Part shown: one piece after another, positions 5,454 to 25,155 of the stretch
Position numbering within the stretch: position 1 is the first letter of the stretch
Layout: each line of letters starts with the position of its first letter
NCBI RefSeq assembly: GCF_016889705.1
Contig: NZ_CP069526.1
Location: 2,604,001-2,668,000 of the forward strand
Reading direction: 5' to 3'
Length of the DNA stretch: 64,000 bases
Origin: Amycolatopsis sp. FDAARGOS 1241
GTDB taxonomy: Bacteria > Actinomycetota > Actinomycetes > Mycobacteriales > Pseudonocardiaceae
Position numbers and translations under genes: made by a program
The notes under the pieces: generated by a model
What the model was told of the DNA's origin: nothing
Databases searched by the model: none
What the model saw: the letters and a program-made list of their open reading frames with translations, nothing else

Positions 5454-5752
5454 CTGCTGGGCCCTCCTCGGCCGGCGATCCGGTCGTCGCAGCCACCCTC
5501 ACCTCGCGTGGCCGGTCATCGCATCGGGGAGTACCCCGCGCCCGGGCACCGGTTGCCCGGCGAGACGCGCCGCCGGTGAACGTGGCCGACGAGGCGCAGG
5601 GCCGGCGAGCAGGTCGGCCGGACCTCTGCCTCAATGCAACCTGCGCGGGCGCCAGGGGATTCCCGGAGGCCGGTGATTCTCGCCATCTGGGTTTTTGTCG
5701 GTGTTCCCGGTTAGGGTGCCACCCGGTAGATCTCGGTGAGGAGTGTGGGGAC
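5454..5752. other. Intergenic region between divergent genes
   Basis: About 300 bp separate the head-domain gene (minus) from the binding-protein gene (plus). It should hold both promoters. I see no strong palindrome or coding pattern in it. Confidence 0.5.
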
Positions 5753-6667
5753 GTGAGCTGGAGCCGGAACATCCGAGTGGCCGCGGCGGTGGCGGTGGCC
5801 GCGCTGGGTTTGGCGGCGTGCGGGGGCGGTGATCAACCGGCTGCGCAGAGCAAGGGTGGCGCGCCGATCGTCGTGGCGTCGTTCAACTTCACCGACAGCC
5901 AGGTCCTGGCGGAGATCTACGCCGGTGCGCTGGAGGCGAAGGGCTACCCGGTCACGCGCAAGCTGAACCTGGGCTCGCGCGAGCTGATCTACCCGTCGCT
6001 GAAAAAGGGTGAGCTGCAGTTCGTGCCGGAGTACCAGGGCGCGGCGATCGCGACCGGCTTCGGCAAGGACGCGGTGAAGGACGCCGCCGGGGAGCACGCG
6101 CAGCTGGCGCAGCTGTTCAAGCCGGAGGGCATCGGCCTGCTGAACTACTCGCCGGCCGAGGACAAGGACGTGTACGTCGTGAAGGCCGACCTCGCGAAGG
6201 CGAAGGGGCTCACGAAGATCAGCGACCTGAAGAAGCTGGACAAAGTGGTCATGGCGGGCGGACCGGAGTGCGAGACCCGGCTGCCGTGCTTCAAGGGTTT
6301 CACCGACGTCTACAAGCTGACGAACGCGACGTTCAAGACCGTGCAGGAGATCGGGCCGCGCGTACAGCAGCTCGACTCCGGCGGCGCGACCGTGATCCCG
6401 GTCGACTCGGTCAGCCCCGTCGCCGGCGACTCGAAGTACGTGGTGCTGCAGGACGATCTCGGCATCGAGCCCACGGAGAACGTGGTGCCGGCCGTGAGCC
6501 AGAAGGTGCTCGACGAGCGCGGCGCGGACTTCGCGAACGTCGTCAACGCCGTGAGCGCGAAGCTGAACACGGACAACCTGCGCGCGCTGAACTCCCGTGT
6601 GGACGCCGACGGCGACCCGGCCGCCGATGTCGCGAAGGACTGGCTGCAGCAGCAGGGGCTGGCCTGA
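5753..6667 (+). CDS. Glycine betaine/osmoprotectant ABC transporter substrate-binding lipoprotein
   Basis: The 304-residue protein begins with a short charged segment, a hydrophobic stretch and a lipobox (GLAACGGG, Cys near residue 23), so it should be a surface lipoprotein. The mature part follows the OpuAC/ProX pattern: IVVASFNFTDSQVLAEIYAG, LEAKGYPVTRKLNLGSRE, LKKGELQFVPEYQGAAI, and a closing VAKDWLQQQGLA. This family captures quaternary amines such as glycine betaine and choline for import. No permease or ATPase gene lies beside it, so it must work with a transporter encoded elsewhere or be an orphan receptor. The GTG at 5753 follows GAGGAGTGTGGGGAC. Confidence 0.85.
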   Translation: MSWSRNIRVAAAVAVAALGLAACGGGDQPAAQSKGGAPIVVASFNFTDSQVLAEIYAGALEAKGYPVTRKLNLGSRELIYPSLKKGELQFVPEYQGAAIATGFGKDAVKDAAGEHAQLAQLFKPEGIGLLNYSPAEDKDVYVVKADLAKAKGLTKISDLKKLDKVVMAGGPECETRLPCFKGFTDVYKLTNATFKTVQEIGPRVQQLDSGGATVIPVDSVSPVAGDSKYVVLQDDLGIEPTENVVPAVSQKVLDERGADFANVVNAVSAKLNTDNLRALNSRVDADGDPAADVAKDWLQQQGLA

Positions 6668-6803
6668 GCCGCCGGGCTCGCTCCGCCTGACCGAACCGAC
6701 CTCGCCGGCTTCGCTGACGCGGTGTGTGCGGCGAGGTCGGCGCGGCGGCGGACTGGCCGCGGAGCGTTCTCGGGAAAACACTGGCGTGAGAGGGGCGGAT
6801 GCC

Positions 6804-8126
6804 ATGACTGCGGGAGAGCTGCACTTCAACGCGTTCGTGTGGCCCAACGGGTACCACGAATCGGCGTGGCGGGTCGTCGAGGACGACGTGCGCGGAGTGC
6901 TCGGGTTGCCGTACTACGCGGACATCGCGCGCACGGCCGAGCGCGGGCTGATGGACACCGTGTTCCTGGCCGACAACATCGCGATCGCGGAGTACCGCAC
7001 CACGTACCTGCCGCAGACGCAATTCGACCCGATCTCGGTGCTGTCGGCGCTCGCCGGGGTGACCAGCCACATCGGACTGATCGGCACGGGGTCCACCACG
7101 TACAACAAGCCGTGGGAGCTCGCGCGCCGGTGGGCGACACTCGATCACCTCAGCGGCGGCCGGGCCGGCTGGAACATCGTCACCACGGTCACGCCGCTGG
7201 CCGCGGCGAACTACGGCGAGGCGGCCCACCCCGATCACGCCGACCGGTACGCGCGCGCCCACGAGTTCGTCGACGTCGTCACGCGGGCGTGGGACAGCTG
7301 GGAAGACGATGCCGTCGTCGGCGACCGCGAGCGCGGCGTGTGGGCCGAGCGCGGCAAGCTCCACGCGCCGCGCTTCCACGGCGAGTTCTACGACGTCGAG
7401 GGGATCCTGCCCTTCCCGCGCTCACCGCAAGGGTGGCCCGTGCTGGTCCAGGCGGGACAGTCGCCGGCCGGGATCGGGCTCGCCGCGCGCTACGCCGAGC
7501 TGGTGTTCTCCGGCCCGCCGTCGCTGGAAGCCGCCGTCGCGTTCCGCACCGACCTGCACACGCAGGCCGCGGCCGCCGGGCGCGACCCCGCCCATGTCCT
7601 CGTGCTGCCGGCGCTGATGGTCACCCTCGGCGGCACCGAGGCCGAAGCGCAGGCGAAGGCGCGGCGCCTCGAAGACCTGGCCAGCCCGGACTTCCGCTGG
7701 CAGAACATCCTGTACACGGCCGGCCTCGACCCCGACGGTTTCGACCCGGACGCCCCGCTCCCCGCCGAGCTGTGGACCGGCCGCGCCGCGCCGTCGAGCC
7801 GCGCGGAGCAGCTCTACGCCGCCTCCCGGGCCCGCCCGCAGGCCTCCCTGCGCGACATCACCGAGGGCCTCAAGAGCGGCGCCGGCCAGTACCACTTCGT
7901 CGGCACCCCCGACCAGCTCGCCGACCACATCCTCACCTGGCAGGACGCCGGCGCCGTCGACGGCTTCACCATCATGGGCTCCACGCTGCCGTATGAGCTC
8001 ACCACCTTCGTCGACCACGTGATCCCCGTGCTGCAGCGCAAGGGCCGCTTCCGCACCGAATACACCGGCTCCACGCTCCGCGACCACCTCGGCCTGCCCC
8101 ACCCCGCGGGCGGCCCGCGCAAGTAG
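6804..8126 (+). CDS. FMN-dependent monooxygenase, NtaA/SnaA/DszA type (LLM class)
   Basis: The 440-residue protein belongs to the bacterial-luciferase-like FMN monooxygenases that use FMNH2 from a partner reductase. Hallmarks of the NtaA/DszA branch are visible: FNAFVWPNGYHESAWR, MDTVFLADNIAIAEYR, the segment LARRWATLDHLSGGRAGWNI followed by VTTVTPLAAANYGEAAHPDH, and FPRSPQGWPVLVQAGQSPAG. Substrates of this branch are sulfur- or nitrogen-containing organics such as chelators, sulfones and sulfoxides. The flavodoxin-fold reductase at 4.3-5.0 kb is a possible electron partner, but on the other strand. The ATG at 6804 follows GAGAGGGGCGG. Directly downstream begins the tandem-repeat region. Confidence 0.85.
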   Translation: MTAGELHFNAFVWPNGYHESAWRVVEDDVRGVLGLPYYADIARTAERGLMDTVFLADNIAIAEYRTTYLPQTQFDPISVLSALAGVTSHIGLIGTGSTTYNKPWELARRWATLDHLSGGRAGWNIVTTVTPLAAANYGEAAHPDHADRYARAHEFVDVVTRAWDSWEDDAVVGDRERGVWAERGKLHAPRFHGEFYDVEGILPFPRSPQGWPVLVQAGQSPAGIGLAARYAELVFSGPPSLEAAVAFRTDLHTQAAAAGRDPAHVLVLPALMVTLGGTEAEAQAKARRLEDLASPDFRWQNILYTAGLDPDGFDPDAPLPAELWTGRAAPSSRAEQLYAASRARPQASLRDITEGLKSGAGQYHFVGTPDQLADHILTWQDAGAVDGFTIMGSTLPYELTTFVDHVIPVLQRKGRFRTEYTGSTLRDHLGLPHPAGGPRK

Positions 8127-8239
8127 CCGCCACGACTCATTCGGGCCGCTTCGGGTCGGGGCGGCCAGTGGCGCAGTGCGACGGGCGCCTTGAGGTGGGA
8201 GGTGCGCTGGCGCGGTGTCGAAACCGGTGTCGGCCTGGC

Positions 8240-9420
8240 TGGTGCCTCGGCGGTCGGGTGGGCGGAAGCCAGGTGACTCGGCTGGTCGGGCTTCTTCGGC
8301 GCCACGGCGGGCGGCGCCGGTCAGCCGGTGTCGTGCGGTGGCAGGTGCGGCTCGAAGCGGAACCGGTACCCGCGGCTTGGCTTGGCGCTGGAGTTCTCGG
8401 TGATTTGGTTCGGCCGGTCGAAGCAGGCGGCGCGGCTGATCGAGGACTTTCAGGTCGGGGCGGCGGGCGGAGCCGCTCGGGTGGGCACCGCGCGGCGGGA
8501 AGTTCGCCGCCACGTGGTGAACCCGGTGGCGCTCGGCATCAGTGCCCTTGGTGGTTCGGCGGGCGGAACCAAGCTGATCGGGGTACTTCAGTGGGCCGGG
8601 GACGGGCAGGGCCGATCAGCCGCATGATGTGCGGCGGCCGTGGTTCGCCGCCACGGGCCGAACGCGGTGGTGAGCGGCGTGGCTTGACGCCGGGTTCTTG
8701 GTGGTCCGGTAGGCGGAATCCAGGCGGCGATTGGTCGAGGAACTTCACGTCGGGGTGCGAGCAGGGCAGGTCGAGTGCGTGTCGTGCAGCGGAGGTGGTT
8801 TGCCGCCGCGTGGCGGAATAGGTGCTGCGCGGCGGCTCGCCGCGGGCGTCGTTGGTGGTCCGGTGGGCGGAAGAAGGCGGCTCGACTGATCGGCGAACTT
8901 CCGCGAGCCGCCGTGGGCGCGGCCGGCCGGCCGAAGGTCGTGCGGCGGGTGTGGTTCACCGCCGCGGGCTGAACGCGGTCACGTACGGCGTGGTTTGGGG
9001 TGGGTGTCGTTGGTGCGGTGGGCGGAAGAAGGCGACCGCCCCGGGGCGATCGGCGGCATGTGCGGCGGGGGTGGCCTGCCACCGCAGGCTGAACCCGCTG
9101 ACGGGCGGCGTGGTTTGGCGCGGGTGTCCTGCGTGGTCCGGTGGGCGGGGAGTTGCCGGCTCGGCCGGCCGGGGAAACCTCAGACTGGGCCGGCAGGGCC
9201 GGTCGGGTGCCGTGCGGCGGGGGAGTTCGCTGGTGCACGTCGAAAACGGTGCTGGGTCGGCGTGGGTGTCCTCTGTGGGTGTCGGCGGGCGGAAGCAGGC
9301 CGCGCGGCTGATCGAGGAACTTCAGGCCGAAGCGGCGAGCAGGAGCCGGTCGAGTGGGGTCGTGCGCCGGGTGAAGTTTGCCGCCGCCGCGGGGAAACCG
9401 GTGCGCGGACGGCACGGCAC
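8240..9420 (+). repeat. Degenerate ~150-bp tandem repeat array, about eight units
   Basis: The core GGCGGGCGGAAG or close variants recurs near 8257, 8411, 8553, 8705, 8862, 9016, 9139 and 9281, i.e. spacings of roughly 125-155 bp. Each unit continues with a second conserved block (CTGATCGAGGAACTTCAGG-like) and ends with a block like GTGCGGCGG..GTTCGCCGCCG. In several units the last block folds as a 6-7-bp stem (GCGGCG / CGCCGC) around a GGTGTGGTT-like loop. Units differ by many substitutions and indels, and some are shortened (the unit at 9016). Some units still encode a similar peptide in one plus frame (GRKQAARLIEELQ at 9290, GRKKAARLIGELP at 8866, SKQAARLIEDFQ at 8418), so an origin from a duplicated coding segment is possible. 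No continuous gene is credible from 8127 to 9502. Confidence 0.75.
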
Positions 9421-9502
9421 CAGCACGGTGGGAGTCCACAGTGGTCGGTCGCGTGCGTGCTGCGAGCGCGGGCCGCCGAGGCGCCGATTGCCGGCGGTGG
9501 AG

Positions 9503-10231
9503 TCAGGCCGTTTCCGGCGATGACTCATCACCGGAATTGTCGCTGGCGGCGCCGAAGGCTTCGATGCCTTCGCGGACGCCGTCGAGGTGTGCGGCGATCC
9601 AGGCTTCCGCGCCCGGCAGGTCGCCGTCGGCGACGCGGTCGATGAGTTCGGCGTGTTTGCTCGCCGGGCGGTGGCTGAAGCGGAAGCTGAGCAGGTAGCG
9701 CCCGACCGTGCTGCGCAGCTGTTCGATCATCTGCACCAGCATCGGGTTGCGTTCGGCGTCGTAGAGGCCGCGGTAGAACCGCACACGCAGGTCGAGGAAC
9801 TCGGCGCCTTCGGGTTCGGCGTCGAGCTGCTCGGCGAGCGCGCGCAGCGAGGTGATGCGCTCGCCGTCCATCCGGGGCATCGACAGGCGCAGCGCGTAGG
9901 TCTCCAGCAGCGCGCGCAGCCGGTAGATCTCGTCGATCTGCGCGTTGTCCAGGCTGCGGACCCGTGCACCCTGGTACGGGTGGAAGGTCACGAACCCCTC
10001 GGTCTCCAGTTGCAGCAGGGCACTGCGCACCGGCACCCGGGAAACCCCGATCGCGGACGCGATCGACTCCTGGCGGATCCGCTCGCCGGGCGCGAACGCG
10101 CCGGTGAGGATCAGTTCCTTGATGACCTGGTAGACCATCTGCCCGACCGTGCGGTAGCCGCCCGAAAGCTGCTGCACCACCGCGGTCACCCGGTGGTCGG
10201 CGCTGAGGTTGCGGCCCTTCTTCGGGGGCAT
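9503..10231 (-). CDS. GntR-family regulator, FCD (FadR-type) subgroup
   Basis: The 242-residue protein has a winged helix-turn-helix at about residues 28-95 (VYQVIKELILTGAFAPGERI, SIASAIGVSRVPVRSALLQL, FVTFHPYQGARVR) and an all-helical FCD ligand domain (DEIYRLRALLETYALRLSMP through HAELIDRVADGDLPGAEAWI). FCD regulators typically sense small carboxylic acids and repress catabolic operons. It lies 70 bp downstream of the molybdopterin subunit gene on the same strand and could be co-transcribed. The paired inverted repeats at 15.4 and 15.8 kb are good candidates for its binding sites, and a weaker similar stretch (GATTCAG at 10274-10280) lies in front of its own gene. Target assignment is inference. 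Confidence 0.85.
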   Translation of the reverse strand: MPPKKGRNLSADHRVTAVVQQLSGGYRTVGQMVYQVIKELILTGAFAPGERIRQESIASAIGVSRVPVRSALLQLETEGFVTFHPYQGARVRSLDNAQIDEIYRLRALLETYALRLSMPRMDGERITSLRALAEQLDAEPEGAEFLDLRVRFYRGLYDAERNPMLVQMIEQLRSTVGRYLLSFRFSHRPASKHAELIDRVADGDLPGAEAWIAAHLDGVREGIEAFGAASDNSGDESSPETA

Positions 10232-18595: not shown

Positions 18596-18719
18596 CGCGG
18601 CTCCGCAGTGCTCCCGGACGGCCGGTACTCGGGCGCCGGCCGCCTGGCTACGTCACGGCCGACTCCGCTTCATGCGGCTGGCTCCGTCGCGCGGATTTCG
18701 GCCCTCCGCCGACTCGGAC

Positions 18720-19410
18720 GTCGGCGAACGGCAGTGGCCGGCTGGTGCCGCTCTGGCCGGGAGCCCAGGCGCAGACGAGGCCCCCGTGCCCGCGACCGGC
18801 CGCACGGCACCGCCGCTCGCCGGAAAACCGTCCGCACCGATCCGCAGCGCTGTCGCGCAAGGACACCCCGGCGCGACCATCGGCGAGCGGACGCGCGAGA
18901 TGGGCCGACGCGCCATCGGGTGCCGCGAGATCTTTTCGACACGCCTGTACCCGACCGGCAGTGCCTCGGCGACGAAGGCCGCCACTGCCCCGAGTCGATG
19001 AAGATGTTCGACCTCTCCCGCATCGTCCCGGCCGCCGCTGCGACGGACGCTGCACGCGCGCGTACGGGTTCGCGCGCGACTACGCCCGCCAGCGCACGCA
19101 GTTCGGTAAGCCGATCATCGAGTACCAGGCCGTCGCGTTCCCTCGGCCCGACGTGGCGACCCGCAACGAAGCCTCGTGCTGCTTCGCGCCGCGCGCCGGC
19201 CCGCCTCGTCGCCCGACGGCGAGCGACCACGCGGCCGAGCTACGGGCGCCAGAGACCGCCGTGACCGCCACCGGGACTGCGGTCCAGACCCGGTGGCGGG
19301 TGGGCTGCTCCCGCGAGTACCCGTCGAACAGTGGATGCGCGACCCGAAACTCGAAGTGATCGGAGAGAACAACTCCGACATCACGCGGCTGGTGCTCACC
19401 GCGATCAGTA
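18720..19410 (+). pseudogene. Acyl-CoA dehydrogenase, heavily decayed
   Basis: No open frame is longer than a fragment, but acyl-CoA dehydrogenase signatures appear in order across several frames: GATIGERTREMGRRAIGCRE near 18870, VPDRQCLGDEG near 18950, MKMFDLSRIVPAAAATDAA near 19000, FARDYARQRTQFGKPIIEYQ and AVAF near 19070, and the C-terminal VEQWMRDPKLEVIGE followed by SDITRLVLTAIS near 19330-19405. At least four frameshifts separate them, and the first 100 or more residues are missing. The 3' end abuts the stop codon of the convergent RHS gene. Bases 18596-18720 hold nothing recognisable. Confidence 0.75.
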
Positions 19411-22400
19411 CTTCCCTTGTTTCGTGTCCCAGAAGTACTCGCTGGCCAGGTTCGTCTTGATCTTGTTCGCGTTGTTCGCATAACGAGGGTCGTTGTTCAG
19501 GACGTTCTCGATGTCGTCGAGCGCGTTTTGGGTTTGCGTCTTCTTCGGGTGGTCGTCGGGGAGGTTGTTGACGTGGTCCAGCATCTGATCCCAGGTGCGG
19601 TTCTTGTTCGCCTTGCCAACGACGTCGCCCAGCGTGTAGTCGGTGCGAGGCGGCTTGTTCAGGTCGAAGTTGTTTTCGTGGTGCAGCACGTTGTGGTACT
19701 CGATGACGGACTTCTGGGTGTTGCCTTGGTTGTACCCGAGCTGGTCCTGCTTGATGTGCCCCATTTCGTGGTACAGCGTCTTGTCGCCTTCCCCGGCCTT
19801 GATGTTGATGGTGCCGGAGTGGTGGTTGTAGCCACCCCCGCCTTGCAAGCCGAGGATGTCGTGGCCCGTGCTGTCACCGAACGGCTTGCCGGTATCGGGG
19901 TTCACGTCTGCGAGCTGTTCCGGCTTGTAACCCATGAACTCGCCGACCGTCTTGCCGCCGTCTTCAGGTCCGAAGCCGTGCGCGACACCAGGAGGCAGAT
20001 CCTCGATCTTCGTGTTCAGCGTGATGCGGGGGTCGTCCGGGATGTTCAGGGTCTTCTGCGGCCCGTTGATACCCAGCTCGTTCTTGTAGCTCTCGTACTT
20101 GTCCTCGAACGGGCGGTCGTCCTTGTCCGGACGGTTGTGCCCAGGGTGGTCCTGGCCCGGGGGTTTGTAGGGCGTGCCGGTGTGCCCGCCCTGGTTGCCG
20201 CCCGAGTGGGACTGACCGCCTTCGGCATCGTGGTGGCCGGTGCTGTCGTGGCCGGTGCCGTCGTGGCTCGTGTTGTCGTGACCGTCGTGGTTGTTGCCGG
20301 TGGTGTCTCCGTGGTCGTGGGACGGCGTGTCGTCACCGTGGTGCGTGGTGGTGTCGTTGCCGTGGTGGTCGTTCGGCGTCGTGTCGGTGTGGTGGTCGCC
20401 CGAAGTGCTCGGGCCGTCGCCACCGCTGTGCGCGTGCCCCGGCGGCGGGGGCGGCGGAGGCGGAGGCGGTGCCCCGTCTCCACCACCGTGCGGCCGCCCG
20501 GGTGGGGGCGGTGGAGGAGGCGGTGGTGCGCCGTCGTTTCCTCCGGGCACGTTCGACCCGCCCTTCGCCGGCGGCGGAGGCGGCGGAGGGGGCGGTGGTG
20601 CGCTGTCCCCACTGCCCGCGTGCGGGCGCGCCGGGGGCGGTGGCGGCGGCGGAGGTGGTGGTGCGCCGTCGTTTCCTCCGGGCACGTTCGAGCCGCCCTT
20701 CGCCGGGGGCGGTGGCGGCGGCGGAGGCGGAGGCGGTGCGCTGTCGCCGCTTCCGGACGGCTTCGTGTCGCCGCCGAGGCCGCGCGTGGGCGGCGGTGGC
20801 GGAGGTGGTGGCGGCGGGGGAGCCGCGTCGCCGGAGCCGGGCAGTTTCGAGCCGATGTTCGGCGGGGGAGGTGGTGGCGGAGGAGGAGGCGGTGCCGAAG
20901 CCGGGTTGGGTGTCGGGTTGGAGTTCTGGACGTGCGTGGCGTCGCTGCCGGCGTTGGTGCGCGGCGGGGGCGGCGGAGCAGGCGTCGGAGGAGGGGTGTC
21001 GGTGTCGTCGGGCTTGCTCTGCGAACAGCCGAGCCCGAGCGGGTCGGCCTCGGACAAGGGGTTGGGCACGTAGGCGATCGGGTTCGGCGCGGGCGAGAGC
21101 CCGAGCGGGTCCTGGCTGAGGTAGCGGCCTGTGCCCGGGTCGTAGTAGCGGAAGACGTTGTAGTGGAAGCCGGTCTCGTCGTCGGCGTACTGGCCTGGGA
21201 AGCGCAGCGGCGTCGACACGGTGCCGGGTCGGCTCGGTTTCACGCGGCCCCACAGCGACGTCGTGCCGTGCCAGGCCACGACCCCGTGGGCGTCGATCAT
21301 GTCGACCGGCGTCCCGATCTGGTCGGTGACGAACGAGAAGAACCGCACCCCGGTGCCGAGGTGCTCGGTCTGCGTGACCGGACGGGTGCTGTCGGGGTAG
21401 TGATCCCACGTGAGGACGAGCTGCCGGCCTTGCGCGTCGCGGTGCACCTGCTCCACGAGCAGCTGACCGCTCCAGGCGAAGGTGACCTCTTCGGCCACGC
21501 TGCCGTCGGGTGCCAGGCGCTGCTTGGCAACGCGCCGGCCGAGCGGGTCGTAGCGGTAGCGCCATTCTGTGCCGTCGGGTGTCCGCACGCCGGTGAGGCG
21601 GTCGAGCGGTCCCCACCGGTAGGTCGAGGTCCGGCCATTCTCGTGGCGGGCGGTCAGCCGGCCCTGCGCGTCGTAGGAGTACCGGACCGCGCCCGCGGCC
21701 GCCAGCGTGTTGCCGGTGTACCGCCGCGGCCCGATCTCGGCGGCCGGCAGCTGCGCGGTGACGATGTTGCCGGCCGCGTCGTAGCGGTAGCTCTCGGTCC
21801 CGCTCGGCGCGGCGACGTCGGTGACCCGGCCGGCTTGGTCGAGCCGGAAGCGCACCGGCCCGGAGAGGGCATCGTCGATCCCGACGACCCGGCCGTCGGC
21901 GGCGTACTGGTACCCGCGCTGCTGGATCACGCGGGCGGTGTCGCGCGCCGTCACAACCTGCCGGGTGAGCTGGTGCTCGCCGTCGAAGGTCTGGGCGAGC
22001 GTGGTGCCGGTGCCTGTCGTGCGCTCGACTTCCCGGCCGGCTTCGTCGTGCCGGAACGTCACCAGCTGCCCGGCGACGGACAGGGTCGCCGGAGTGCCGT
22101 CGGGTGCGTAGGTCCACGCACTGTCCACACCAGACGGCGTGAGGCGCTGCACGCGCGCCTCGTCGTACGCGTAAGTGACCGCACGGCCGTCGATGGATTC
22201 CCGCACGACACGGCCGGACTCGTCGCGCTCGATCTCCACGACGCTGTCGCCTTCGGTGGCGCGCACGAGGAAGCCGACAGGGTCGTAGACGTACGTGGTC
22301 ACCCCGGCCGGTGTCCGGCGTTCGACCACGTTGCCCAGCGCATCGTAGACGTAGGTCGTGGCCGCGCCCAGCCCGTCGACGGACTTCACGAGCTGGCCGG

Positions 22401-25155
22401 CGTCGTCGTATTCGAACCGCAGGACCCGGCCGTCGAAGTCCGTCTCGGACACCGTGCGCCCGGCGGCGTCGTAGGTGTAGGACCAGCTCAGGCCCGCGGG
22501 GTTCGTCACGCGGGTGAGCCGCAGTTCGGTGTCGTACTCGTACGAGGTCCGGGCGCCGGTAGGCTCGATCTTCGCCACGGTGAGGTCGAAGGGGCCGTAT
22601 TCGTACCGGACGCCCGCGTGCTCGACGACGTTGCCCTCGGCGTCGTAGCGCCATTCTTCCTGCCGGCCCGTCGGGCCGATCCGGCTGGCGCGCCGCCCCT
22701 CGACCGTCCAGCCGAGGCGAGTGCGGCCACCGGACGCGTCCGTGACGACGCGCGGGCGGCCGAACAGGTCCCGCTCCACCGGGTCTTGAGCCGGTGCCGG
22801 CGCGACCTCGGCTGTCCACTGCCGGTCCTGCTGGAACTCCGTGCCGGCGGTGGCGCGCACGGCGAACAGGTCGGGTGCCTCCCCGGTCGGGAACACCCGC
22901 CGGTAGGTGCGGTCGCCACTGGTGACGGTGAGCGTGAGCGAACCGTCGGCCCCGGACTCGACTTCGGCGCGGCTGCCGTCCGGGCGGACCACCGCCGTCA
23001 GCAGGCCTTCGCCGGTGTATTCGAACTCCGTGGTGCGGCCCAGCCCGTCGGTGCGGGAGAGCAGGCGGTCGTAGCGGTCCCAAGTGGACACCGTCGTCTC
23101 ACCGAGTGGACCGACCTCGCGCACGACCTGGTCGGCCTCGTTGAGGTGGAACTGGGTGCGGTGCCCGACAGAGTCGGTGTACGTGGTGATCCGGCGCTCA
23201 CGGTCGTAGTCGAACTGGCCGTCGTAGAAGCCGCGGTCGCCGACGGTGCGCACGCAGCGGCCCTCGGCGTCGTAGACGTAGCGGTACCAGACTCCGTTGC
23301 GGTCCTGCCAGCCGGTGATCCGGCCCTCGGCGTCGTAGTCGTACGTCTCGGCCAAGCCGGACGAGTTGATCACCCGGGTCAGGCGGCCCAGCTCGTCGTA
23401 GCCGAAGCTGCGGGCGAGCACGGTGAGGTTTCGCGTTTCGTCGAGCACTCGCAACGCCGTGATCCGGCCGGCGTCGGTGTCGAGCTCGACCAGGTACCCG
23501 GTGGAGTGCTTCAGCAGCTTCGGTGCGCCGAGCGGGTCGTATTCGACCACGACCCGTTCTCCGCCGCGCCCGGTCAGCTCCGCGACCGGGAGGACGTCAC
23601 CGCCGCGGCCGGACAGCCGGCCGAACCGCAGTTCGGTGCCCCGCAAGGGATCGGTGACCGTGTAGGTGCCGTCGTCCGCGACCGCCAGGGGCCGGCGAGG
23701 TCCTTCCGCGGGCTGCACCGGTGAGCCAGGTGCGGGGAGCGGGTAGACGAGGATGGTGCCGTCGGCCGAGTAGAAGGTGGCGTTGCGCGCATCCAGTTCG
23801 AGGCGCTGGTCCACGGTGGACGTCCACGTGGGACCGAACCACCGGCCCGCCCGGTACGACGAGAGGTGCAGCCGCTCCAGCACGAGTGGGTCCGGCAGGC
23901 GCAGGTCGACCTGCTCCAGCACGACAGTGCCGCGCACCACGTCGACCGGGTCGGATTTGCAGACCAGGTTGTCCTTGCTCACCGCGGTGTCACGCGGGTT
24001 GCCCGGCTTGGGCGACGGCGGCGGAGTGCCCGGCGTGCCCTTGGGCGTACCGCCGGGTGGAGGTGCATCGGCCGACGAAGGAGCCGGGTCCGGATCGGTC
24101 TTGGGCGGTGGGGGCGGATCGCTCTTCGGAGGCGGCGGGGTGTCGCCGCCTCCTGTGCCGGAGACGTGGGTGGCATCGTCGCCGCCCGATTTGGCGGGCG
24201 GGGGCGGGGTGCCGCCACCGCCGTGGCTGCCCCCGCCACCGGCGCTGGAGGAGTGCGTGGAGTCATCACCCCCCGACTTGGCCGGTGGTGGCGCACCGTC
24301 GCCCCCGCCCTTCGGGGTGCCCCCACCACCACCGACGGGCTTGGGCGGGTCCTTCGGCATGCCGCCGACGTCGCCACCCTTGCCCGCCGACGAGACCTTG
24401 CCACCCTTGAGGCCCTTCAACGCCTTACCGGCGTCCTCGAACAGCGTCCCGGCCTTCTTCAACAACGGGATCAGCGCCTTGAGCGCCTTCACCAGCTTCG
24501 TCACGATCGAGGTGATCTGCGAAGCGGTCTTGGCGACCGCGCTGACCACCTGAGGCACCACCCACGCCAACCCGACACCGAGGGTGAACACCACCTGCAA
24601 CGCCCAACTGATCAAATGCCCGACCAGCTCCGAAATGATGTCGCGCACCAGCGTCCGCACCGCCGCCACGACCTCACCCGCGGTCTTCACCCCGGACGAC
24701 GCGCCCTCACAGCCCTTCTGCGCCGCCTGCAACGTCGTGCCCAGATCCTGCGCCCGCTGCCGATACGCATCCGACGCATCCCCCGACCAGGCCTGCAGAT
24801 CCGAACTCACCGCGCTGTTCAGATCATCCGCAACGCTGCCCAGCTCCTTGGCGACATTCGCCCACGTCTCCGACTGCGCCTTGATCTGATCCGCATTCCC
24901 CGTCAACCCGTTGAGCGCGTCCTTGAGCGGGCCGACGTGCTCCATCAACCACGACACACCCGCAGCCAGAATCGCCCCGAACGGATCCATCGCCACCGAG
25001 AGCGCATCCAGCGCGGTGCCGACCGCACCCATCGCCACCGACGCCCAGTCCCCCGACTCGATCGCCGACGACAGATCGTTCGCCGTCTCCAACAGGGAAA
25101 TGCCCGAATACGCCTTCGTCGAATCGACCGTCGGCGCGATCAAGGGGTTGGTCAT
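19405..25155 (-). CDS. WXG100/RHS-repeat polymorphic toxin with C-terminal HExxH metallopeptidase-like domain
   Basis: The 1916-residue protein is built in modules. Residues 1-170 form a helical WXG100-like domain (WSG at 123-125), suggesting export by a type VII (ESX) system. Residues about 180-240 are hydrophobic helices, and about 250-395 are a Gly/Pro-rich linker. A DUF6531-type start (SDPVDVVRGTVVLEQVDLRL) follows near 400, then many YD/RHS repeats (YDAEGRITGWQDRNG, YDALGNVVERRTPAG and others) to the core end YDPGTGRYLSQDPLGLSPAP near 1350. Residues about 1420-1570 are polyproline blocks, 1580-1645 a His/Asp-rich stretch, and the tip (about 1680-1916) contains TLYHEMGHIKQDQLGYNQ, with HEMGH at 1796-1800 as a zinc-peptidase signature. 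RHS shells encapsulate their toxic tip, used in competition between bacteria. No immunity gene follows: downstream is a pseudogene on the other strand. Confidence 0.85.
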   Translation of the reverse strand: MTNPLIAPTVDSTKAYSGISLLETANDLSSAIESGDWASVAMGAVGTALDALSVAMDPFGAILAAGVSWLMEHVGPLKDALNGLTGNADQIKAQSETWANVAKELGSVADDLNSAVSSDLQAWSGDASDAYRQRAQDLGTTLQAAQKGCEGASSGVKTAGEVVAAVRTLVRDIISELVGHLISWALQVVFTLGVGLAWVVPQVVSAVAKTASQITSIVTKLVKALKALIPLLKKAGTLFEDAGKALKGLKGGKVSSAGKGGDVGGMPKDPPKPVGGGGGTPKGGGDGAPPPAKSGGDDSTHSSSAGGGGSHGGGGTPPPPAKSGGDDATHVSGTGGGDTPPPPKSDPPPPPKTDPDPAPSSADAPPPGGTPKGTPGTPPPSPKPGNPRDTAVSKDNLVCKSDPVDVVRGTVVLEQVDLRLPDPLVLERLHLSSYRAGRWFGPTWTSTVDQRLELDARNATFYSADGTILVYPLPAPGSPVQPAEGPRRPLAVADDGTYTVTDPLRGTELRFGRLSGRGGDVLPVAELTGRGGERVVVEYDPLGAPKLLKHSTGYLVELDTDAGRITALRVLDETRNLTVLARSFGYDELGRLTRVINSSGLAETYDYDAEGRITGWQDRNGVWYRYVYDAEGRCVRTVGDRGFYDGQFDYDRERRITTYTDSVGHRTQFHLNEADQVVREVGPLGETTVSTWDRYDRLLSRTDGLGRTTEFEYTGEGLLTAVVRPDGSRAEVESGADGSLTLTVTSGDRTYRRVFPTGEAPDLFAVRATAGTEFQQDRQWTAEVAPAPAQDPVERDLFGRPRVVTDASGGRTRLGWTVEGRRASRIGPTGRQEEWRYDAEGNVVEHAGVRYEYGPFDLTVAKIEPTGARTSYEYDTELRLTRVTNPAGLSWSYTYDAAGRTVSETDFDGRVLRFEYDDAGQLVKSVDGLGAATTYVYDALGNVVERRTPAGVTTYVYDPVGFLVRATEGDSVVEIERDESGRVVRESIDGRAVTYAYDEARVQRLTPSGVDSAWTYAPDGTPATLSVAGQLVTFRHDEAGREVERTTGTGTTLAQTFDGEHQLTRQVVTARDTARVIQQRGYQYAADGRVVGIDDALSGPVRFRLDQAGRVTDVAAPSGTESYRYDAAGNIVTAQLPAAEIGPRRYTGNTLAAAGAVRYSYDAQGRLTARHENGRTSTYRWGPLDRLTGVRTPDGTEWRYRYDPLGRRVAKQRLAPDGSVAEEVTFAWSGQLLVEQVHRDAQGRQLVLTWDHYPDSTRPVTQTEHLGTGVRFFSFVTDQIGTPVDMIDAHGVVAWHGTTSLWGRVKPSRPGTVSTPLRFPGQYADDETGFHYNVFRYYDPGTGRYLSQDPLGLSPAPNPIAYVPNPLSEADPLGLGCSQSKPDDTDTPPPTPAPPPPPRTNAGSDATHVQNSNPTPNPASAPPPPPPPPPPPNIGSKLPGSGDAAPPPPPPPPPPPTRGLGGDTKPSGSGDSAPPPPPPPPPPPAKGGSNVPGGNDGAPPPPPPPPPPARPHAGSGDSAPPPPPPPPPPAKGGSNVPGGNDGAPPPPPPPPPGRPHGGGDGAPPPPPPPPPPGHAHSGGDGPSTSGDHHTDTTPNDHHGNDTTTHHGDDTPSHDHGDTTGNNHDGHDNTSHDGTGHDSTGHHDAEGGQSHSGGNQGGHTGTPYKPPGQDHPGHNRPDKDDRPFEDKYESYKNELGINGPQKTLNIPDDPRITLNTKIEDLPPGVAHGFGPEDGGKTVGEFMGYKPEQLADVNPDTGKPFGDSTGHDILGLQGGGGYNHHSGTINIKAGEGDKTLYHEMGHIKQDQLGYNQGNTQKSVIEYHNVLHHENNFDLNKPPRTDYTLGDVVGKANKNRTWDQMLDHVNNLPDDHPKKTQTQNALDDIENVLNNDPRYANNANKIKTNLASEYFWDTKQGKY
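20440..20895 (-). repeat. Polyproline block repeats inside the RHS toxin gene
   Basis: Seven or more runs of 9-11 prolines are separated by short Gly/Ser/Asp spacers. Two blocks with spacers AKGGSNVPGGNDGA are nearly identical at DNA level (about 20522-20570 and 20657-20705), implying recent duplication. Copy number here would be prone to slippage. Just downstream in the protein (about 20220-20400) lies a His/Asp-rich stretch that might bind metal. Confidence 0.8.

What the first reader, a model, noticed from the sequence alone, without database searches (positions are those of the whole stretch)
8240..9420. Eight-unit degenerate tandem repeat with conserved hairpin and peptide traces
Between an intact monooxygenase and a GntR gene lies about 1.2 kb made of ~150-bp units. 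A GGCGGGCGGAAG core recurs at near-regular spacing, and a distal block can fold as GCGGCG...CGCCGC around a GGTGTGGTT-like loop. Some units (8.4, 8.87, 9.29 kb) still share a peptide (RKQAARLIEELQ-like) in the plus frame. The pattern is neither CRISPR nor a known IS. It could be a structured RNA/DNA array, a regulator-binding array, or the wreck of a repeat-protein gene.
Basis: seen in the sequence. Interest (0 to 1): 0.72.

Follow-up and report, generated by a model that had tools for sequence, protein, structure and literature searches.

The report
Decayed intergenic tandem repeat array
Between two genes of a large-genomed bacterium lies an old, badly decayed stretch in which a piece of DNA of about 150 letters was copied head to tail eight or nine times; it codes for nothing detectable and looks like one of many such leftovers in this genome, which sit behind genes rather than in front of them.

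Summary
The repeat is real: eight ~150-bp units (8253-9445), 57-77% alike, plus a probable ninth at the monooxygenase stop codon (8118-8240). Repeat signal is 475 against at most 52 in 100 shuffles. A structured RNA or wrecked repeat gene is not supported: the named hairpin has no two-sided change, units fold little better than shuffles, conservation is even along the unit, and there is no codon periodicity, Pfam match or protein homologue. The unit was found only here in its genome; no second array turned up in 79 congeners or an order sample, within capped searches. In 1.664 Mb sampled of this genome, 21 of 257 intergenic regions of 300 bp or more are arrays by my rule; none of the 21 lies between divergent genes, against 72 of 236 others (one coding case removed). 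Best reading: an old lineage-specific minisatellite, grown by duplication where no promoter is hurt and now decaying. A role in ending convergent transcription is not excluded.

The parts
8118..8240 (+). probable unit 0, most diverged copy; overlaps the last 9 bases of the monooxygenase gene
   Evidence: nhmmer with the 8-unit profile, 25.8 bits, E 9.2e-7, 9.7e-6 over 1.664 Mb; not listed
8253..8406 (+). unit 1 (type A)
8407..8553 (+). unit 2 (type B; peptide trace)
8554..8704 (+). unit 3 (type A)
8705..8858 (+). unit 4 (type B by the ML tree; placed elsewhere by FastTree)
8859..9013 (+). unit 5 (type A; peptide trace)
9014..9136 (+). unit 6 (type A, with an internal deletion of about 33-38 bp by alignment)
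9137..9279 (+). unit 7 (type unclear)
9280..9445 (+). unit 8 (type B; closest to unit 2, 0.77); profile match 9282-9434
6804..8126 (+). upstream gene: luciferase-like monooxygenase, ends at the array
   Evidence: PF00296 E 1.2e-43; ATG at 6804 chosen by eye inside the longer frame 6597-8126
9503..10231 (-). downstream convergent gene: GntR/FCD regulator
   Evidence: PF00392 E 2e-16 and PF07729 E 4.7e-20

Best explanation
An old intergenic minisatellite. A non-coding segment of about 150 bp downstream of the monooxygenase was duplicated head to tail; two copies probably diverged into types A and B, and the A-B pair of about 305 bp was then amplified; the whole now decays by point changes and indels without detectable selection. 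Shown: the repeat, its uniqueness in the searched set, absence of coding and structural signal, even conservation. Suggested: A/B types. Inferred: replication slippage or unequal exchange as the source, the order of events, neutrality. That the sampled arrays of this genome avoid divergent promoters suggests that arrays survive where no promoter is disturbed.
For: Repeat far above shuffles. Unit found only at this locus in its own genome, next hit E 0.0098; no second array in 79 other congeners or the order sample; no match at E<=1e-5 in plasmid and phage collections. Column identity even along the unit: variance of the 12-column mean reached by 59% of 5000 column permutations. GC by codon position flat (0.67-0.78) in four long overlapping frames, against 0.93 and 0.90 at position 3 of the flanking genes. 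Split u1,u3,u5,u6 / u2,u4,u8 is best of 35 4+3 splits (u0 and u7 left out; chosen after seeing the matrix). In 1.664 Mb of the same genome 21 of 257 intergenic regions of 300 bp or more are arrays: 12 convergent, 9 tandem, 0 divergent.
Against: Eight or nine copies are still recognisable, so slow homogenisation or weak constraint cannot be excluded. Strand bias is strong (GC skew 0.25, AT skew -0.19) and duplication alone does not explain it. Support for A/B is modest: IQ-TREE 56-78, and FastTree does not put unit 4 with units 2 and 8. The evenness test used only eight units and has little power. No orthologous locus was found, so decay is inferred from one copy of the locus.
Confidence: 0.75

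Rival explanations
1. A transcription-stopping spacer: the array separates two convergent genes, and its C-rich, G-poor minus-strand transcript acts as a loading region for Rho, so that read-through from the regulator gene does not enter the monooxygenase gene. Repetition multiplies the loading sites.
For: Convergent position; plus strand 630 G against 378 C over 8127-9502, so minus-strand RNA is C-rich; only 2 weak terminator-like pattern hits, 0.8 expected; sampled arrays avoid divergent regions.
Against: In the 9 tandem arrays the sense strand is G+T-rich in 6 and C+A-rich in 3, the opposite of what Rho loading would ask. Avoidance of divergent regions is equally expected from promoter constraint. 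No expression data.
Confidence: 0.1
2. Array of sites for a DNA-binding protein (regulator or nucleoid protein), e.g. the neighbouring GntR protein.
For: Recurring GGCGGGCGGAAG-like block near each unit start.
Against: No stretch of the unit, that block included, is more conserved than column permutations give (maximum reached in 55%); the array lies behind the GntR gene, not in its promoter; no other copy found in the genome.
Confidence: 0.06
3. Remains of a repeat-protein gene.
For: Shared peptide in units 2, 5 and 8; open frames of 217, 233, 216 (+) and 283 aa (-); my first, laxer gene caller took 8328-8627 (+) as a gene just over its threshold (score 26, limit 25).
Against: Four of seven spacings are not multiples of three (155, 146, 154, 155); 4 of 45 alignment gaps are multiples of three, though many one-base gaps mirror an insertion in a single unit; no codon periodicity; mismatches even over codon positions for units 2 and 8, slight third-position lean for pairs with unit 5 (5,7,8 and 3,6,8); no Pfam match at E<=1; none of 7992 scored candidates at E<=10 for the 233-aa frame.
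Confidence: 0.05
4. Tandem structured RNA (hairpin array).
For: GCGGCG...CGCCGC can pair in some units; folding z-scores are mostly slightly negative (7 of 8 plus, 6 of 8 minus).
Against: No two-sided change in 48 cells, 83.3% paired against 83.8% in shuffles, and a 3-column slide pairs equally well; z-scores +0.55 to -1.57 (plus) and +0.74 to -1.66 (minus), none extreme; no Rfam match.
Confidence: 0.03

Closest known systems
Prokaryotic satellites / minisatellites (Subirana and Messeguer 2019, PMC6749651; abstract, outline and five found passages seen)
   Same: Units of 10-260 nt repeated at least 4 times; families usually species-specific; a table lists Amycolatopsis mediterranei with 23 satellites and a last column of 39.1, which I take to be the percentage with long repeats.
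   Different: Their method accepts only satellites with at least 60% of repeats of identical length, to leave out irregular ones; here 2 of 7 spacings are equal and units are 57-77% alike.
MIRU/VNTR loci of mycobacteria (recalled, not looked up)
   Same: Intergenic minisatellites in an actinomycete.
   Different: Those are near-identical, polymorphic, and dispersed as families; here one diverged locus.
Higher-order satellite repeats of eukaryotes (recalled)
   Same: Possible two-unit higher-order period.
   Different: Tiny, bacterial, and support is modest.

Membership tests
Bacterial minisatellite (general) | at least 4 head-to-tail copies of a 10-260 bp unit | tested here: met
   8 copies and a probable ninth
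Regular satellite sensu PMC6749651 | at least 60% of repeats of identical length | tested here: not met
   spacing 155, 146, 150, 154, 155, 123, 144 from the profile matches; their program was not run
VNTR/MIRU | copy number varies between strains | not testable with these tools
   no second genome with the locus found
CRISPR | short near-identical repeats with unique spacers of fixed size | tested here: not met
   the whole ~150-bp unit repeats, 57-77% alike, no unique spacers
Structured RNA array | compensatory changes or excess folding | tested here: not met
   a different RNAalifold structure has 5 of 27 pairs with a two-sided change but covariation term 0; Rfam none
Repeat-protein gene remnant | frame-preserving units, codon periodicity, homologue | tested here: not met
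IS or MITE | further copies in the genome | tested here: not met
   unit found only at this locus, next hit E 0.0098, 150 of 19658 candidates scored; no IS library searched

The most novel reading that the evidence does not exclude
This genome carries on the order of 120 arrays (124 extrapolated from 21 in 17%), 14 of the 21 seen without likeness to another sampled array, kept to gene 3' ends and often strongly G+T-biased on one strand; they could be a recurrent, sequence-free kind of transcription insulator between genes, in which repetition and base bias matter rather than sequence.
Probability: 0.1. Interest if true: 0.65.

Novelty: new member of a known kind. Interest (0 to 1): 0.3.

Why it matters
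As a single locus it is ordinary: an old minisatellite. As a class it is of some use: arrays by my rule make up 21 of 257 longer intergenic regions sampled here; the diverged ones can escape Tandem Repeats Finder (for this one) and a published survey that keeps regular satellites only; and the sampled ones avoid divergent promoters and are biased in base make-up between strands. Whether 3'-end arrays are merely tolerated or help to end transcription can be tested.

Tried and rejected
Nothing came of Tandem Repeats Finder, Rfam, Pfam on the four frames over the array and one protein search. Weak DNA matches in 16 of 59 other genomes (26-66 bases each) and weak profile matches in 10 of 79 other congeners (best 7.0e-5, in G096) were checked: no fetched locus showed two copies of this unit at E<=0.1. 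The G096 hit lies in what reads by eye as a recombinase gene. Four of the loci have strong repeats of their own (L029, L051, L053, L055; totals 378 to 1214; best offsets 81, 45, 69, 45, all multiples of three); the other checked loci total 82 or less.

Limits of the searches: one search scored 150 of 19658 candidates and did not list unit 0; one search scored 37 and only 7 candidates per genome with strict filters, and one search lists 7 of the 8 units in the own genome. Distant copies could be missed. The 397 genomes include the own genome and some congeners; one other genome (G405) has one weak match (7.2e-4).

The G+T-rich strand as leading strand: dnaA lies at 9.189 Mb and block skews agree roughly with an origin near it, but only 14 of 22 regions, L093 included, follow, and 148 of 236 others do so too. 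As sense strand of tandem genes: 6 of 9. Both dropped.

Synteny: G198, of another genus, keeps 5684-6667 and 6816-8098 at 84-86% and then differs (transposase-like by eye), without the array; G540 has the monooxygenase (82%) followed by an HNH-type gene by eye, without the array. Neither shows an empty site. The longer stretches of both were fetched but not analysed. GntR relatives in congeners are at most 56% alike; the genome-contig scan found GntR proteins of 25-37% only.

Row dropped before counting: L093:10678-11166 met the array rule but is coding (Pro-rich gene in shifted frames). It was the only divergent case; with it the count is 1 of 22 against 72 of 236 (Fisher p 0.0065) instead of 0 of 21 (p 0.0015). 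The gene-call threshold was raised from 25 to 35, which made 8127-9502 one region.

Full report
Observation. Between the monooxygenase stop codon (8126) and the end of the convergent GntR gene (9503) lie 1376 bases that are repeated head to tail. The number of positions with at least 21 of 30 matches at offsets 40-499 is 475; 100 dinucleotide shuffles give mean 12.35 and maximum 52. In the same window only the repetitive frame near 19-21 kb scores higher. Eight units align over 174 columns with pairwise identity 57-77%. Tandem Repeats Finder reports nothing.

Anatomy. Spacing is 155, 146, 150, 154, 155, 123 and 144 bp (profile matches, corrected for profile position). Unit 6 carries an internal deletion. 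Identity does not fall with distance: units 2 and 8, six steps apart, are the closest pair (0.77). Units 1, 3, 5 and 6 resemble each other more than they resemble 2, 4 and 8; this split ranks first of 35 possible 4+3 splits, and strict alternation of units 1-5 first of 10. IQ-TREE gives 56-78 for the branches concerned; FastTree keeps u2 with u8 (0.41) and u1, u3, u5, u6 together (0.82) but puts u4 elsewhere. The split was noticed before it was tested, so the rank is no clean p-value. It suggests that a two-unit block of about 305 bp was itself amplified; the strongest offset is 311.

Not a gene. Four long open frames overlap the array, but GC by codon position is flat (0.67-0.78), while both neighbours have 0.90-0.93 at third positions. 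Pfam finds nothing in them at E<=1. One protein search with the 233-aa frame that holds the RKQAARLIEELQ peptide found nothing at E<=10 among 7992 scored candidates. In that segment mismatches between units 2 and 8 are 4, 3 and 3 by codon position; for units 2-5 and 5-8 they are 5, 7, 8 and 3, 6, 8, a slight third-position lean too small to count.

Not a conserved structure. For the proposed stem 83.3% of 48 cells pair, as in shuffles (83.8%), with no two-sided change; sliding the partner by three columns pairs equally well. RNAalifold gives a different structure with covariation term 0, though 5 of its 27 pairs have a two-sided change in some unit. Units fold slightly better than their shuffles in 7 of 8 cases on the plus and 6 of 8 on the minus strand, none beyond z -1.66. 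Rfam has no match at gathering threshold in the window nor at E<=1 in the array.

No sign of selection within the unit. Mean column identity is 0.65, and the variance of its 12-column running mean is ordinary (reached in 59% of 5000 permutations). A binding site, stem or peptide under strong selection should stand out as a block; with eight units weak selection would not.

Distribution. In its own genome (9.8 Mb, unnamed; Amycolatopsis or a near relative is my guess from size and kin, from no named record) only this locus matches; the next hit has E 0.0098. Of 79 other congeners 10 show one weak match each, none with a second copy at E<=0.1 nearby. Of 397 genomes sampled in the order (own included), one other has a single weak match. 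Plasmid and phage collections have none at E<=1e-5. These searches score few candidates per genome.

Context in the genome. I took 80 stretches of 20 kb from the same genome and, with the window, called genes by a simple codon-position score and scored intergenic regions. By a rule first used, after the first 40 stretches had been seen (repeat score at least 50, more than twice the maximum of 20 shuffles, fewer than 70% of hits at multiples of three), 22 of 258 regions of at least 300 bp qualify. One is coding and was removed, leaving 21 of 257. Twelve are between convergent genes, nine between tandem genes, none between divergent genes; the 236 others split 50, 114 and 72 (Fisher p 0.0015 for divergent, 0.0007 for convergent). 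The avoidance was noticed on these same data. It holds at other thresholds and after dropping six arrays that share sequence with one another (0 of 15 divergent, p 0.0071; convergent p 0.049). In the later 40 stretches alone the list gives 14 arrays: 10 convergent, 4 tandem. Two other genomes gave 2 arrays in 24 and 1 in 22 regions of at least 400 bp, none divergent.

Strand bias. Arrays have a mean absolute G+T against A+C bias of 0.174, against 0.090 for 150-bp pieces of other intergenic DNA; without the six related arrays 0.140, p 0.0095. Six of the 21 are at 0.05 or less. The array in question is at 0.23. I have no good explanation; replication strand and sense strand do not account for it.

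Interpretation. The simplest account is an old minisatellite that grew by tandem duplication in a spacer without promoters and is now decaying. The convergent position and C-rich minus-strand RNA allow a role in ending transcription, which cannot be tested here; the tandem cases speak against a general Rho role. One other array (L096:11850-12900) also has no match at E<=1e-8 in 79 other congeners (5 candidates scored per genome), in line with fast turnover.

Literature. Subirana and Messeguer 2019 (PMC6749651; abstract, outline and five found passages seen) survey regular satellites and leave out irregular ones. In the lists returned by four text searches (listings only, apart from that paper) I saw no title on degenerate arrays at gene 3' ends in this group; three of the lists were cut (20 of 108, 10 of 14, 10 of 502), and the library holds only part of the literature.

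Noticed in passing
L088:12180-12460 (not in the window); core also at L076:278, L100:3173, L164:12045, L182:4148: A dispersed palindromic element with a GGAAAGCGTGCCTTGAC core, next to G+T-rich ~78-bp repeats in some copies. The 281-bp query matches 60 of 80 genomes of the genus (own included) at E<=1e-8, in many up to the nine candidates scored. The exact core is not in the window.
   Followed up: partly
19405-25155 (-): Long minus-strand frame that reads by eye like an RHS/YD-repeat protein with Gly-rich and His-rich stretches near its end; it holds the window's strongest repeat signal. No family search was made.
   Followed up: no
18596-19404: About 800 bp with traces of an acyl-CoA-dehydrogenase-like frame by eye, no gene called; perhaps a pseudogene.
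   Followed up: no
5684-8098: Two pieces (5684-6667 and 6816-8098), holding the neighbouring gene and the monooxygenase, are 84-86% identical in a genome of another genus (G198), which could mean transfer of the block.
   Followed up: partly
L096:4958-6015: Younger-looking 154-bp tandem array in the same genome, copies nearly identical by eye.
   Followed up: no
L093:10300-11900: Pro-rich gene that continues in another frame: a frameshift or an assembly error.
   Followed up: no
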